From: Niastella vici
Lineage (GTDB): Bacteria; Bacteroidota; Bacteroidia; Chitinophagales; Chitinophagaceae
Direction: 5' to 3'
Length of the DNA stretch: 64,000 bases
NCBI RefSeq assembly: GCF_002077945.1
Contig: NZ_LVYD01000001.1
Span: 620,001-684,000 of the forward strand
Below the pieces are notes generated by a model, which had not been told where the DNA came from, searched no databases, and saw only the letters and a program-made list of their open reading frames with translations. Of the stretch, positions 1-5,469 are shown one piece after another. How positions within the stretch are numbered: the stretch's first letter is position 1; every line of letters starts with the position of its first letter. Both the position numbers and the translations under genes were made by a program.

Positions 1-556
1 CGAGTTGTTCGGTAATACCGGTAGCAGCTTTTTCAGCTACGCGGCCACCGCCGAATTGTTTTTCGCCAATATGAATGATACCATTTAAGAAGGTACCATT
101 AGTTAGCACAACAGATTTTGATTTTATTTCATGACCAAGGCCGGTTACTACTCCACAGGCGCGGCCATCTTTAACGACCAAACCTTTTACCATGTCCTGG
201 TAAAAATCAACATTAGGAGTCTTTTCTAATAGCTCACGCCAGGTAGCGGCAAATAACATGCGGTCACTTTGAGCACGGGGACTCCACATGGCCGGACCTT
301 TTGAAAGGTTAAGCATGCGAAACTGGATCATGCTGAGGTCGGTGACGATGCCTGAGTATCCACCCATGGCATCAATTTCACGTACAATTTGACCTTTGGC
401 AATACCACCCATGGCAGGGTTGCAACTCATTTGAGCAATGGTTTGCATGTTCATGGTTACTAAAAGAACCTTAGACCCAAGGTTAGCGGCAGCAGCGGCG
501 GCTTCACAACCGGCATGACCTGCCCCTACAACTATTACATCGTATTCTGGAAACAT
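1..556 (-). CDS. mnmG: tRNA uridine-5-carboxymethylaminomethyl modification enzyme MnmG (GidA), N-terminal part
   Basis: FAD-dependent half of the MnmE-MnmG complex, which modifies U34 of certain tRNAs in the cytoplasm. Only about the first 185 residues lie in the window; the rest runs off the left edge. Translation of the minus strand begins MFPEYDVIVVGAGHAGCEAA, the FAD-binding Rossmann motif GxGxxG with the family-typical HAGCEAA. It continues with MGGIAKGQIVREIDAMGG and with FLNGIIHIG, all diagnostic of MnmG. The start at 554-556 is the only sensible ATG before the Rossmann motif. A possible -7 element (TAATTTTG read on the minus strand) lies within about 15 bases upstream. In many bacteria gidA/mnmG lies near the replication origin, which matters here because parS-like sites follow directly upstream of it. 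Confidence 0.97.
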   Translation of the reverse strand, partial: MFPEYDVIVVGAGHAGCEAAAAAANLGSKVLLVTMNMQTIAQMSCNPAMGGIAKGQIVREIDAMGGYSGIVTDLSMIQFRMLNLSKGPAMWSPRAQSDRMLFAATWRELLEKTPNVDFYQDMVKGLVVKDGRACGVVTGLGHEIKSKSVVLTNGTFLNGIIHIGEKQFGGGRVAEKAATGITEQL

Positions 557-1796
557 GGTGCAAAATTACAAGATGGTAAGCAAGGGGTAAAAAGAGAAAA
601 AGGAGGGGTAAGGGAAAATGGGGATTGAAAGGTGGGTTTTAGGATTGCTTTAGGAAGAATATCGCTTTACTCTTTCCCGCTCCACGCATTCTATAAGTCC
701 AGTACATAACCAACACACCGCTCATTAAACTCCATCAACGTCTAAACTCTCCCTTTCAAGTTATTCTTCATGATTTGTTTGGGTTTTTAAGTTAATCCTG
801 GGTCTGAAATAGCTGGTTCGAATTTGGCTCCTGGGTACTGATCCCCTTCTATTGTTTCAATAGGAAAGCTGATAAATAAATGTTCACCCTTGTGGATTCG
901 AAAGGTAAAAGGAAGTATTGATGTAGAGGGTTAACTCATTTTATAAAATGATAGAAAGGGGGGATAACCTTAACCTGGATGACCCTTAAGAAATTTCCTT
1001 TTATGCCAGTTCCATAAAATGTATAGTGAGCATTCTGGTAAACTCTGAAATATTTTTGGGGCACTAAGTGGTTGCTTAAGGAAGGGTTATACCTGGTTGG
1101 TCTTATGTTGGATTGGGTTTATTGGTATAGGGAAAGCCTCTGGACCATACTAGTATGCGAGTTTTCTCATTAAGCAGGAATTAGGATATATCTACTAAGG
1201 GCCTTCGCCCCATGTTTTTTCAAACTTTCGTATCATGGAGCATAGATATTGGGATCTTAGGGATTGGTACATAATAGGTGCATTTACCATGATTTTTATA
1301 GGGTTCAAATGAAGGAAATAGTGAAGGGTCATGCACCAGCTAAGTCAGGGTTGTTTAGATGAGGGTGCTTTTTTTGATAATTGTTTACAAGGACTTATCT
1401 GGGTGAATCTGTCTGGTACTGGTTTACTCATTCTTTTAAGGGGTCTATTCTACTGATAATCCAGGTGAAGGGTTCTAATTAGTGGTACCTATTTATGGAA
1501 TTGACCCGGTAATTCTGTTAGCTATCCTTTTCCTTTTTCTTAAAGGTCTATGGTTATAAATATTTAAAAGTGGGGGACTCCCCTCCTCTTGAATGTCTAA
1601 GTTCCCTGGAAGATGGGCCCTTCCAATATTTTAGGGTATCCTGTTTTATTAGTCTACGGACAAAGGATAGTCTTACAAGTTTTGATCTTTCTTCTTCTAC
1701 CCTCCCAATTAGATTCGTTTGTATAGTTAGTTATTGGGTTTTCTATAAATAGTCTTTCAGATCTGGTATGTTCCTTTTGCGTGGAATGAGGTTTGA

Positions 1797-1812
1797 TGTT
1801 CCACGTGGAACC
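1797..1812 (+). other. parS-like centromere site, copy 1
   Basis: The sequence TGTTCCACGTGGAACC contains the perfect 14-bp palindrome GTTCCACGTGGAAC at 1798-1811. This matches the widely conserved chromosomal parS core bound by ParB (GTTnCACGTGnAAC). An identical 16-mer in inverted orientation lies at 4009-4024. No ParA or ParB gene is in the window, so binding is inferred from the motif. Confidence 0.85.
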
Positions 1813-1975
1813 AACTACTCTGTAATTGAGGTATATAAGTGTGGTGATTTCAAGTTTGATTCTAATAGGGATTGATTAGTCCTACCACTAAGGATGTCTT
1901 TATTTGTCGATCCTATACAGGGTGAAGATTTAAATCCCCTGTTAAAAGGGGTAACCTCTCATCTCCTTTACCTAT

Positions 1976-3690
1976 TCTTCAAGCTTTTGTTCCTTCCTGG
2001 TTTTTCCTTGTAAAGGTTGGTTACCTCCGCTCCTTGTATTAATCTGGGTTCCCCTGCTTTATTTGAAAGGAGTAGAAAGGGGAGAATTAGGGACAAGGTA
2101 GAAGGTAGTCCTTTCCTGTTTGAAGAGTTCAATTATCATTTCTTTTGACCAATTGTTCGAGAGTTTGTTCCTTCCTGGTTATTTCTGATAAAGGTTGGTT
2201 ACCCTCCTTGTAGTTATTCGGATTCTCCCGACTTATATGTAAGGATTAGAAAGGGAAAATAAGGGTAAAGGGAAGATAGTCTCCTGATTGAAAAGCTCAA
2301 TTATCCTATCCTTGACTCCTTCCTCCAGCTTTTGCTCCTCTCAGGATATTCCTGTAAAGTGCGGTTACCTCCTTGTTGTAAAACCGGATTCTCCGGCCTT
2401 ATTTGTAAGGAGTAGAAAGGGAAAATAAGGTAAGATATTCCCTTCCTGTTTGAAGAGTTCTATTATCCTATCCTTCGACCTATCCTTCAACCTTTCTGGT
2501 CCTTCCAGGATATTCCTCTTAAAGCTTAGCTACCTCCTTGTTGTAATCCAGGTTCTCGAGCCTTATTTTTAAGGTTTAGAAAGGGATGATTAGGGGTAGG
2601 TGGAAGATAGTCTTCTGATTGAAAAGTTCAATTATCCTGTCTTTGACCCATTCTTCCAGCTTTTGATCCTCCCAGGATATGCCTGGTAAAGGTTAGTTAT
2701 CTCCTTGTAGTAATGCCAGAGTTCCCCCGTATTTATACAGATTTGTAATGGAGGATAAGGGGTAAGGTAGAAGATAGTCCTCGCTGATTGAGTAGGCTCT
2801 CTGATATAGTAGGTTTAAAAGGACTCTTTTAACTTGGAATGTTCCCGATAAAGTTTGCTTTATCCTTGTTATAGTTCCCGATTACCCAGCCTTCCCTTTC
2901 AAAGGATTAGTGAAAGACCACATGCACAAGGCTTAAAGGGTTATCCTATTTGAAAGATTTGCCTGTAGTTGTAAGGTCATTATGGACCTTTTTTATTCCA
3001 GTGTATGTGCCTGGTAAAGGTCATCTTGTTCCACTATGGTATAACCTTTGGGTTCCCTACCCTCCCTTTATGGGTTTAGTAAGGTTATGGGTTGAAGGTT
3101 TCTACCCATTTCTTGTAAGGCACCGTTTTCCCTTAAACTTGTATTTACTAATAGAGCTTGTATCTAAAGGAAGCCCTTTATAAAGGTTGGTTTCTACTTT
3201 ATATACAATTTGGTATTTCCTGGCTCACCTTGGATGGGAGAAACAAAGGCTTAGAGTATTTATTGTTGATTTATCCCTGACTTTTACGGTTCACTTAGGC
3301 GCCTTCCTCGATGTTCATTATAGACTTTTTATCTCCAGGATATTGCTGGTAGGTATTCTTTCCCTTTAGTTACCCTGCCCCTTTGGCCTTATCTGTATGG
3401 ATAAGAGGGTGAGGCTTAAGGATAGGATTTTAGAGGTTTTCAGTTTGAAAGGATTTATGAAATCTTAGGACCATAGCTCTTTTGTTGAGGAAGGGAGTTT
3501 CTGGTAAGGTGGGATTCTTTACCAGGATTTTATATAAGGTCGTTGAACGAACTCGGGGTCTGTTTAAATAGATTCTTCATAGATGATCAGAACTTAGAGT
3601 TTGACTATCACTTCAGGTATTTAGTCTCTTTAGTTAGCAGGTAATATCAAAGATTGGGTAATAAGTATAGTTAGTTAAGGTTATTTCAAT
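1976..3690. repeat. Degenerate tandem array, period about 166 bp, 10-11 units
   Basis: A conserved block beginning TAAAGGTTGGTTACCTCC and followed by CTTGTTGTAAT recurs in degenerate form. Its TAAAGG-like anchor is at 2011, 2189, 2355, 2520, 2687, 2849, 3015, 3181, 3350, 3505 and 3676. The spacings are therefore 178, 166, 165, 167, 162, 166, 166, 169, 155 and 171 bp. A second shared block, TGAAAAGTTCAATTATCCT-like, recurs at 2121, 2289, 2451, 2620 and about 2789, which confirms the period independently. Units 2-5 are the most alike and the ends of the array are strongly diverged. The array lies wholly between the two parS-like sites. It contains no plausible gene. Confidence 0.8.
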
Positions 3691-4008
3691 TCAAGACTCC
3701 TTAATAGTTCGGTTCTTTTCTCCTCAGGTCGGGAAGACTGATGTTTGTTTTGAACCCCTGGAAATTGCTTGTCCTAAGGGTATTCAGGAACCTTAGAATA
3801 GTTAAGTTTTTAGGAGGGTTGGCAAGAGCAGAAGGTGAGTTCAGGGGAACTAACTTGATCATTTATTTAAGGCGGGAAACAGGAAAAGGGAGTTCCAATC
3901 ATATAGTCGGAACTCCTATTTACTTTGGCCAAGGTCAGTTCTTACCAAAGGGGACACTTTGTTCTTCTGTAATGAAGTAAGTAAGGATAATAAGGTGCTG
4001 ATAATCTT

Positions 4009-4024
4009 GGTTCCACGTGGAACA
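4009..4024 (-). other. parS-like centromere site, copy 2 (inverted)
   Basis: GGTTCCACGTGGAACA on the plus strand is the exact reverse complement of the 16-mer at 1797-1812. It ends two bases before the ybeY stop codon (4027-4029), in the 3' flank of that gene. The two sites are 2.2 kb apart and face each other across the 166-bp repeat array. Confidence 0.85.
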
Positions 4025-4026
4025 TC

Positions 4027-4902: not shown

Positions 4903-5469
4903 TTGCCTATTCCATTATATAACTCACTTACTTTATAACATTACTTGCTTACGCTGAATCATTGCTTGCTAACAATGCATCATTAGTAACTGACTTCGTA
5001 TCATTACTCCGCGACTTTGGTCTATAGCTCCGCGACTTGTGTTTATAAATTCGTGACTTCTCAGTCAAAGTCAGTGACTTTTGTCCAAAGGTCTGCTACC
5101 TATCATTCAAAGTTGTTGACCAATGCACCATTGTTAGTGAGCAACATATCAATCTCAGTGAGCAATGCACCAATGTTAACGAGTAACAAATCAATATTAG
5201 TGAGCAACTCATCAATGTCAGCGAGCAATGCACCAGTGTTTGCGAGTAACGCATCGATGTTAGTGAGCAATGCATCATTGTTGGTGAGTAATGCACCATT
5301 GTAAGCTACTTACATTGCAAAGTCAGCGACTTATGCTCCAGAGTCAGGTAGCTGTTATTCAATGTCGCCGAACTATACTGCATTGTCGCCGGGTAATGCA
5401 TCATTGTTTGCGAGTAATACACAATTGCTCCCAGGTAATGCACCATTGTAAGTTACCAACGCCGCATAA
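4903..5469. repeat. Array of 27 units in strict 21-bp phase
   Basis: From 4903 to 5469 the sequence divides into 27 consecutive 21-bp units with no insertion or deletion, although the units diverge in sequence. The best-conserved stretch (5113-5301) has units like TTAGTGAGTAATGCATCATT plus a final G. Many units contain the dyad CAATG-3 bases-CATTG. A second subfamily, with TCAGTGACTT at its start, fills 5008-5091. The frame that reads the units as 7-residue repeats carries stops at 4936, 4984, 5302 and 5449. There is no signal peptide, so coding is unlikely. A 21-bp period equals two DNA helical turns. The rest of the gap up to nadD (5470-5713) holds nothing recognisable. Confidence 0.9.

What the first reader, a model, noticed from the sequence alone, without database searches (positions are those of the whole stretch)
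1797..4024. Two identical parS-like sites in inverted orientation bracket the gene desert beside mnmG
TGTTCCACGTGGAACC at 1797-1812 and its exact reverse complement at 4009-4024 carry the chromosomal parS core. They are the only two such 14-mers I saw in 64 kb. They face each other over 2.2 kb of DNA without genes, and all the repeat units lie between them. This suggests a ParB-loading centromere, probably near the origin, with mnmG as a common origin-side neighbour. The pairing of parS sites with a satellite-like array is, to my knowledge, not a described arrangement in Bacteroidota.
Basis: partly seen in the sequence, partly recalled or inferred. Interest (0 to 1): 0.85.

Follow-up and report, generated by a model that had tools for sequence, protein, structure and literature searches.

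The report
Origin-side centromere in a gene desert
The two matching DNA words are almost certainly the landing sites (parS) of the machinery that pulls the two chromosome copies apart, near the replication origin of a soil bacterium; the unusual part is that they sit in several thousand bases of mostly gene-free, repeat-prone DNA whose length, but not whose sequence, is kept in related species.

Summary
Confirmed. GTTCCACGTGGAAC occurs exactly twice in the 10.06-Mb genome, at the stated places. All 10 genus genomes held carry 2-3 copies, all in the gap upstream of mnmG (G008: beside ybeY; its contig ends before mnmG). In three single-contig relatives the sampled cumulative GC-skew minimum brackets the sites, while dnaA and parB lie 0.7-2.6 Mb away. 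DnaA-like boxes, mostly with one mismatch, cluster 4.4-5.2 kb from the mnmG start on its other side in 9 of 9 testable genus members: the likely oriC. ParA-ParB and SMC are present. The slot is old: 49 of 80 MnmG loci have parS cores just upstream. So this is the ParABS centromere beside oriC.

New is the desert: 2.7-4.5 kb in ten species against a family median of 0.5 kb, gene-free in seven, largely unalignable, with a different tandem array in 5 of 10, poor in A-tracts. Two of those five arrays lie outside the parS pair, so 'bracketing' is incidental. I favour a kept-empty runway for ParB clamps, but a neutral origin is about as likely. Depletion of the promoter -7 box was not desert-specific.

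The parts
1..556 (-). mnmG (gidA), 5' part; the gene continues left of the window (C1:618694-620556)
   Evidence: Pfam GIDA E 1.1e-162; position
561..568 (-). possible mnmG -7 promoter box (TAATTTTG on the - strand), 4 nt from the start codon
   Evidence: CAAAnnTA at desert position 5 in 9 of 10 genus members; G008 lacks this stretch because its contig starts later; TAnnTTTG is the sigma-A -7 consensus mapped in Flavobacterium psychrophilum (PMC9723704, passages)
557..4026 (.). gene desert between mnmG and ybeY, 3470 bp
   Evidence: longest ATG ORF 79 aa; 2.7-4.5 kb in the ten genus members, largely without sequence similarity
1797..1812 (+). parS1, TGTTCCACGTGGAACC
   Evidence: identical to Pseudomonas aeruginosa parS1/parS4
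4009..4024 (-). parS2, same 16-mer on the - strand, 2 nt from the ybeY stop codon
   Evidence: within 17-23 nt of the ybeY end in 8 of 10 genus members, not in G003 and G006
1964..2714 (+). tandem array, period about 167 bp, 4.5 copies, 73% matches
   Evidence: TRF; weaker copies to about 3421; the stretch 1813-4008 matches nowhere else in the own genome
4027..4476 (-). ybeY, endoribonuclease YbeY
   Evidence: Pfam YbeY E 3e-28

Best explanation
These are the two chromosomal parS sites of a ParABS system, i.e. the centromere, 6-8 kb from the likely oriC. ParB (encoded far away) would load at the two sites, slide along the flanking DNA as a clamp and recruit ParA and SMC, so that this segment is moved first after replication (inferred from the known ParABS mechanism). 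In this genus the mnmG-parS-parS-ybeY gap has grown to 2.7-4.5 kb, gene-free in seven of ten species, poor in A-tracts and poor in fold. I propose that its length and its lack of genes and of bound proteins are what is kept, as a roadblock-poor runway for ParB and SMC, while the sequence drifts and tandem duplications rise and fall in it. Shown: sites, position, origin signal, conservation of place and length, loss of sequence similarity, composition. Inferred: ParB binding, the runway, and selection on length. The confidence figure (0.8) is for the first part, a parS centromere beside an oriC that lies outside the desert. The purpose of the desert is a separate question: runway about 0.35, neutral about 0.45 (first rival, which shares the parS reading), something else the rest.
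For: Two sites in 10.06 Mb; the backward-read control pattern is absent in all genomes. All 10 genus genomes have 2-3 cores, in the gap upstream of mnmG or, in G008, beside ybeY. Sampled skew minimum between 7.65 and 8.10 Mb in G004 (sites 7.83), 2.21 and 2.45 Mb in G027 (2.37), 0.50 and 0.84 Mb in G031 (0.63); on the own contig the six 20-kb samples to the left are -0.018, -0.151, -0.037, -0.019, -0.037, +0.001, and to the right of the desert skew is +0.015 and +0.024. DnaA-like boxes, 4-6 within 1 kb, in the SurA-like - nadA gap in 9 of 9 genus members. ParA-ParB operon, ParB with N-terminal, HTH and C-terminal domains, PDB ParB matches to E 9.2e-56, SMC E 6.9e-301. The 16-mer equals P. aeruginosa parS1/parS4. 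Gap: genus 2685-4519 bp against a median of 509 bp in 102 family genomes. A-tracts: AnTn 6-mers observed/expected 0.30 in the ten genus deserts, 0.46 in 11 other gene-free parS gaps, 0.67 in convergent gaps, 0.84 co-directional, 0.93 divergent; below expectation in 10 of 10 deserts; 34 of 112 expected in the seven gene-free deserts.
Against: No binding or expression data. Of the boxes in the candidate oriC only two of 39 (one each in G001 and G005) are exact TTATCCACA, none in the own genome, and 1-kb skew bins near the locus are noisy. Three of the 10 genus gaps hold a shared gene (200-265 aa from the first ATG, no Pfam match for the one tested) beside parS1 (G003, G004, G008), so the zone need not be empty. 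The depletion of TAnnTTTG (10 observed, 37 expected, both strands) is also seen in ordinary convergent gaps (10 observed, 24 expected), so avoidance of promoters is no special mark of this desert. mnmG differs by 11% or more between species, so loss of similarity is no faster than neutral drift would allow. Published work finds that ParB can pass roadblocks by recruitment in trans, and cites ChIP-seq without strong changes near genes (PMC9242446, passages), which weakens the need for a runway. A quarter of the 102 readable family gaps are 134 bp or less.
Confidence: 0.8

Rival explanations
1. The sites are parS, but the desert and its array are neutral: genes beside parS are lost, for instance because ParB silences them, and the gap then grows and shrinks freely with slippage and duplication.
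For: The gap correlates weakly with genome size (Spearman 0.26, n=102). The slot carries quite different contents among relatives: a CAP-domain gene, an unrelated gene without Pfam match, another gene without Pfam match, or nothing. ParB represses promoters next to parS3/parS4 in P. aeruginosa (PMC5521831, passages). No shared motif of 9-10 nt beyond shuffles.
Against: All ten genus members keep at least 2.7 kb while sampled gaps of six genus members have medians of 106-200 bp; a neutral stretch should also gain A-tracts as other noncoding DNA does (inference).
Confidence: 0.45
2. The desert is, or contains, the replication origin itself.
For: The skew minimum lies here at the resolution of 167-450 kb samples, and mnmG (gidA) is a neighbour of oriC in E. 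coli (recalled).
Against: At most two boxes within 1 mismatch of TTATCCACA in any genus desert and no cluster, while boxes cluster on the other side of mnmG in 9 of 9; in 19 of 70 MnmG loci long enough, at least 4 boxes in 400 bp lie 3.5-6.5 kb past the mnmG start, against 0 of 360 control segments.
Confidence: 0.07
3. The desert encodes a long structured RNA.
For: Size, position and strand asymmetry would allow it.
Against: No Rfam match at gathering score in the four deserts searched (G000; G003, G004, G007); mean folding z -0.15 against -0.91 in other noncoding DNA of the genus; little sequence conservation.
Confidence: 0.04
4. The 16-mers are chance or belong to a mobile element or plasmid.
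For: A second ParB-like domain, in a 632-aa open frame, exists in the genome (C24).
Against: Genome-wide rarity, zero in the control pattern, and conservation of place.
Confidence: 0.01

Closest known systems
Chromosomal ParABS with origin-proximal parS cluster, e.g. Pseudomonas aeruginosa parS1-4
   Same: Identical 16-mer (parS1/parS4 TGTTCCACGTGGAACC, PMC4368675, passages seen); few perfect sites near the origin; ParA-ParB operon and SMC found here
   Different: parAB is far from the sites here (relatives); only two or three sites, in one intergenic gap of several kb
Origin parS clusters of gut Bacteroidota (Bacteroides caecimuris, Muribaculum intestinale; PMC10197239, passages seen)
   Same: parS cluster and GC skew mark the origin; the paper notes that the origin does not systematically coincide with dnaA
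   Different: That study reports no condensin homologue in its two Bacteroidetes; this genome has an SMC hit over the curated cut-off. The passages I saw mention no desert and no mnmG-ybeY slot
Regional (satellite) centromeres of eukaryotes (recalled)
   Same: Works-like resemblance only: conserved function and place, divergent repeats of 150-330 bp
   Different: No homology; parS is sequence-specific and conserved; a large array is present in only 5 of 10 species and sometimes outside the parS pair

Membership tests
Chromosomal ParABS centromere (parS) | 16-bp palindrome of the parS consensus | tested here: met
Chromosomal ParABS centromere (parS) | sites rare and clustered near the replication origin | tested here: met
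   2 in the genome; skew minimum in three single-contig relatives, sampled at 20 x 20 kb each; own genome sampled for skew on contig C1 only
Chromosomal ParABS centromere (parS) | cognate chromosomal ParA and ParB | tested here: met
   C49 operon, Pfam domains, PDB matches; that this ParB is the cognate one is inferred
Chromosomal ParABS centromere (parS) | parAB close to the sites and to oriC, as in many models (recalled; common but not defining) | tested here: not met
   parB 0.7-2.6 Mb from the sites in G004, G027, G031
Chromosomal ParABS centromere (parS) | ParB binds and spreads from the sites | not testable with these tools
   needs ChIP-seq
Replication origin (oriC) | cluster of DnaA boxes within the desert | tested here: not met
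   the cluster lies outside the window
Structured noncoding RNA locus | conserved sequence or stable fold | tested here: not met

The most novel reading that the evidence does not exclude
Bacteria of this genus (and, in other genera, relatives such as G145, G137 and G083) keep a regional centromere: parS seeds inside kilobases of DNA selected for length and for being featureless (no genes, no A-tracts, no fold), in which satellite arrays arise again and again, so that the centromere is defined by short seeds plus a stretch of 'empty' DNA and not by sequence, much as in eukaryotes.
Probability: 0.25. Interest if true: 0.8.

Novelty: new variant of a known kind. Interest (0 to 1): 0.5.

Why it matters
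It gives the centromere and the likely origin of a group in which dnaA and parAB are misleading landmarks: the gap upstream of mnmG can be used to find them. It also offers a natural series, from a 55-bp gap to 4.5 kb, for testing whether the DNA around parS must be free of transcription and bound proteins for ParB and SMC to work, and why satellite-like DNA arises at a bacterial centromere.

Tried and rejected
Shared motifs in the deserts: 7- to 10-mers common to many species are no more frequent than in shuffles. Half-parS sites: GTTCCAC 6 observed, 3.0 expected; GTTTCAC 7 against 3.0; GTTCCA 25 against 16.8, over ten deserts, with four of the six GTTCCAC in G007 alone; too weak to claim ParB half-site arrays. 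RNA. Remnants of the slot genes in the genus deserts: tblastn of 15 slot proteins gave nothing better than E 0.09, while slot proteins find each other at up to E 8e-85.

Promoter-free desert: TAnnTTTG was the most depleted of 4096 patterns in the ten deserts, and rank 3 in the seven gene-free ones and in 11 other gaps. For other noncoding DNA the rank was 682 and for coding DNA 98. The control with convergent gaps (observed/expected 0.41 against 0.27) showed the same avoidance, so I withdrew it as a special feature.

My own gene caller is rough: it missed ybeY and feoA in the window, so its gap there (5208 bp) is too long; of the ten larger gaps elsewhere that I checked, most contain long open frames (up to 1129 aa), but G004 C1:4957239-4959888 (longest frame 121 aa) and a 2.2-kb gap in G001 (108 aa) do not. 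In some searches the genus deserts include the three that hold a gene; one search leaves them out.

Full report
Observation. In the 10.06-Mb, 134-contig genome these are the only two places with at most one mismatch to the perfect palindrome, and the only two exact copies of GTTYCACGTGRAAC. The window is C1:620001-684000. The sequence equals parS1 and parS4 of Pseudomonas aeruginosa, which its ParB binds with an affinity only slightly below that for the perfect palindrome (PMC4368675, passages).

Place. In one search, 32 of 59 genomes hold KGTTCCACGTGGAAC; the control pattern is found in none. I fetched 20 of those 32 (10 genus members, own included, and 10 others of the family). In 19 of 20 mnmG lies beside the sites (in G008 the contig ends first), and ybeY is found in 18 of 20. 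Of these 80, 49 have a parS core (GTTYCACGTGRAAC) within 1.7 kb upstream of mnmG; 109 of 141 cores lie there, 22 around the mnmG stop codon and 6 inside mnmG; the control pattern has none in 1.53 Mb. Thirty-one loci have no such core; in only a few of these does the contig end that close, and the strict pattern may miss variants. The slot is therefore old and not peculiar to this genus.

Origin. In three single-contig relatives, G004 (9.03 Mb, same genus), G027 and G031, twenty 20-kb samples each place the cumulative skew minimum at the sites (4-12% of each genome sampled). dnaA and parB are far: G004 sites 7.83 Mb, dnaA 0.00, parB 1.39; G027 2.37, 4.32, 4.21; G031 0.63, 2.54, 3.24. On the own contig the skew is zero or negative in six samples to the left and positive to the right, though single 1-kb bins vary in sign. 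Boxes like TTATCCACA do not cluster in the desert. They cluster 4.4-5.2 kb from the mnmG start on the other side, in the gap between a SurA-like gene and nadA (gene identities from the own genome), in 9 of 9 genus members tested, 4-6 boxes each; only 2 of these 39 boxes are exact, the others have one mismatch. In 60 background samples of 20 kb, three held 3 boxes in 500 bp. Among the 10 family members outside the genus a cluster is at -4.2 to -5.0 kb in four (12 boxes in G027), elsewhere in four (G015, G024, G031, G035), and absent in two (G012, G014). Of 70 MnmG loci long enough, 19 have at least 4 boxes in 400 bp at +3.5 to +6.5 kb; of 360 control segments, none. The own candidate oriC is at about C1:615.70-616.15 kb, outside the window, 5.6-6.1 kb from parS1.

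Machinery. A ParA-ParB operon is on C49; ParB matches Spo0J and ParB structures. SMC is on C124.

The desert. The gap is 2685-4519 bp in the ten genus members (G008's 2957 is a lower bound because its contig starts inside). In 147 family genomes the gap could be read by hand for 102: median 509 bp, and at least 2.5 kb only in G000, G007, G145 and G137. Between genus members the deserts share about 45 bp next to mnmG, the parS sites with a few flanking bases, and little else; the exception is G004-G008 (947 bp, 72%), explained by a gene beside parS1 also present in G003 (264 and 265 aa in G003 and G008, 203 aa from the first ATG in G004; hydrophobic C-terminal segments by eye; no Pfam match for the G003 protein). 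So seven of ten deserts are without a recognised gene (longest ATG ORF 67-113 aa). mnmG identity is 0.83-0.89 in the 14 of 36 species pairs printed (the others are not above 0.85), so the loss of similarity needs no special speed; what needs explaining is the retained length.

Arrays. TRF finds large tandem arrays in 5 of 10 genus deserts with periods 167, 193, 213, 75/150/288 and 183 bp, which do not align with each other. In G003 and G007 the array lies outside the parS pair. In 1.28 Mb from six genus members (window included), noncoding arrays with period at least 60 and score at least 200 were found at six places outside the window, one with a score above 500; the best array of each of the five deserts scores 540-919. 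Outside the genus, arrays of period 60 or more recur in 3 of 11 gene-free parS gaps: G145 (133 bp, 9 parS), G137 (68 bp, 3 parS) and G083 (106 bp x 8.3, 3 parS). The own array is found nowhere else in the genome. Arrays at this locus thus seem to arise repeatedly, but half of the genus has no large one.

Composition. The deserts are T-rich on the + strand (10 of 10) and mostly G-rich (8 of 10), poor in A-tracts and poor in fold. AnTn 6-mers are at 0.30 of the shuffled expectation, A5 0.55 and T5 0.57; convergent gaps of the same genus give 0.67, 1.14 and 0.85. The seven gene-free deserts alone give 34 of 112 expected AnTn 6-mers. In 11 gene-free parS gaps outside the genus the ratios are 0.46, 0.75 and 0.58. 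Array copies are not independent, so these counts are over-dispersed; the sign for AnTn 6-mers is the same in all ten deserts. The sigma-A -7 box TAnnTTTG (consensus seen in PMC9723704, passages) is strongly depleted, but so it is in convergent gaps; I read this as the general avoidance of stray promoters.

Mechanism. ParB loads at parS and slides as a CTP clamp; roadblocks stop sliding, although clamps can pass them by recruitment in trans (PMC9242446, passages). A long stretch without genes, A-tracts and, by general avoidance, promoters would let clamps and SMC spread freely around the two seeds. This fits length without sequence, but it is not shown, and the neutral rival (ground that no gene can use; compare ParB repression near parS3/parS4, PMC5521831, passages) is about as likely.

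Novelty. Searches of the open library for parS with Bacteroidetes or Bacteroidota (36 papers, 15 listed; 386, 20 listed), for oriC with mnmG in Bacteroidetes (27, 15 listed), for parS with tandem repeats and centromeres (43, 15 listed) and for parS with mnmG and ybeY (6 listed) showed no paper whose title or opening of the abstract describes this slot, desert or array; the unlisted ones were not seen. Livny 2007, the parS survey, is not held and may list such sites. I read no paper in full; passages were seen of PMC10197239, PMC4368675, PMC13342612, PMC9723704, PMC9242446 and PMC5521831.

Noticed in passing
window 4939-5449: A second, different minisatellite (21-nt units, GAGCAATGCACCA-like) lies between feoA and nadD, about 0.9 kb right of parS2 and outside the parS pair.
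   Followed up: no
L249, L252, L253, L256 (G103, G114, G129, G154): In relatives with a gap of about 750-800 bp a CAP-like gene (Pfam CAP for G103; the others by similarity) sits between two parS sites, and in these four its start codon runs into parS, so the protein begins MFHVK. G107 and G023 have the gene and two parS but a different start.
   Followed up: yes
L247, L248, L251, L254, L255 (G097, G112, G157, G066, G122): Another slot gene of about 190-220 aa, without Pfam match for the member tested (G157), occupies the same gap; no strict parS core was found there.
   Followed up: partly
L030, L031, L035 (G003, G004, G008), beside parS1: A gene of about 265 aa, without Pfam match for the member tested (G003), lies in the desert of three genus members; in G004 the frame opens without an early ATG.
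   Followed up: partly
named loci among L116-L195: A further parS core lies around the mnmG stop codon (22 cores), and six cores lie inside mnmG, five of them at the same place near codon 128.
   Followed up: no
G000 C24:337202-337642: A second ParB-like domain in a 632-aa open frame; G015 has a like one.
   Followed up: no
L067 5239-7888 (G004 C1:4957239-4959888): Another stretch of 2.65 kb without a frame above 121 aa or an Rfam match, far from the origin.
   Followed up: partly
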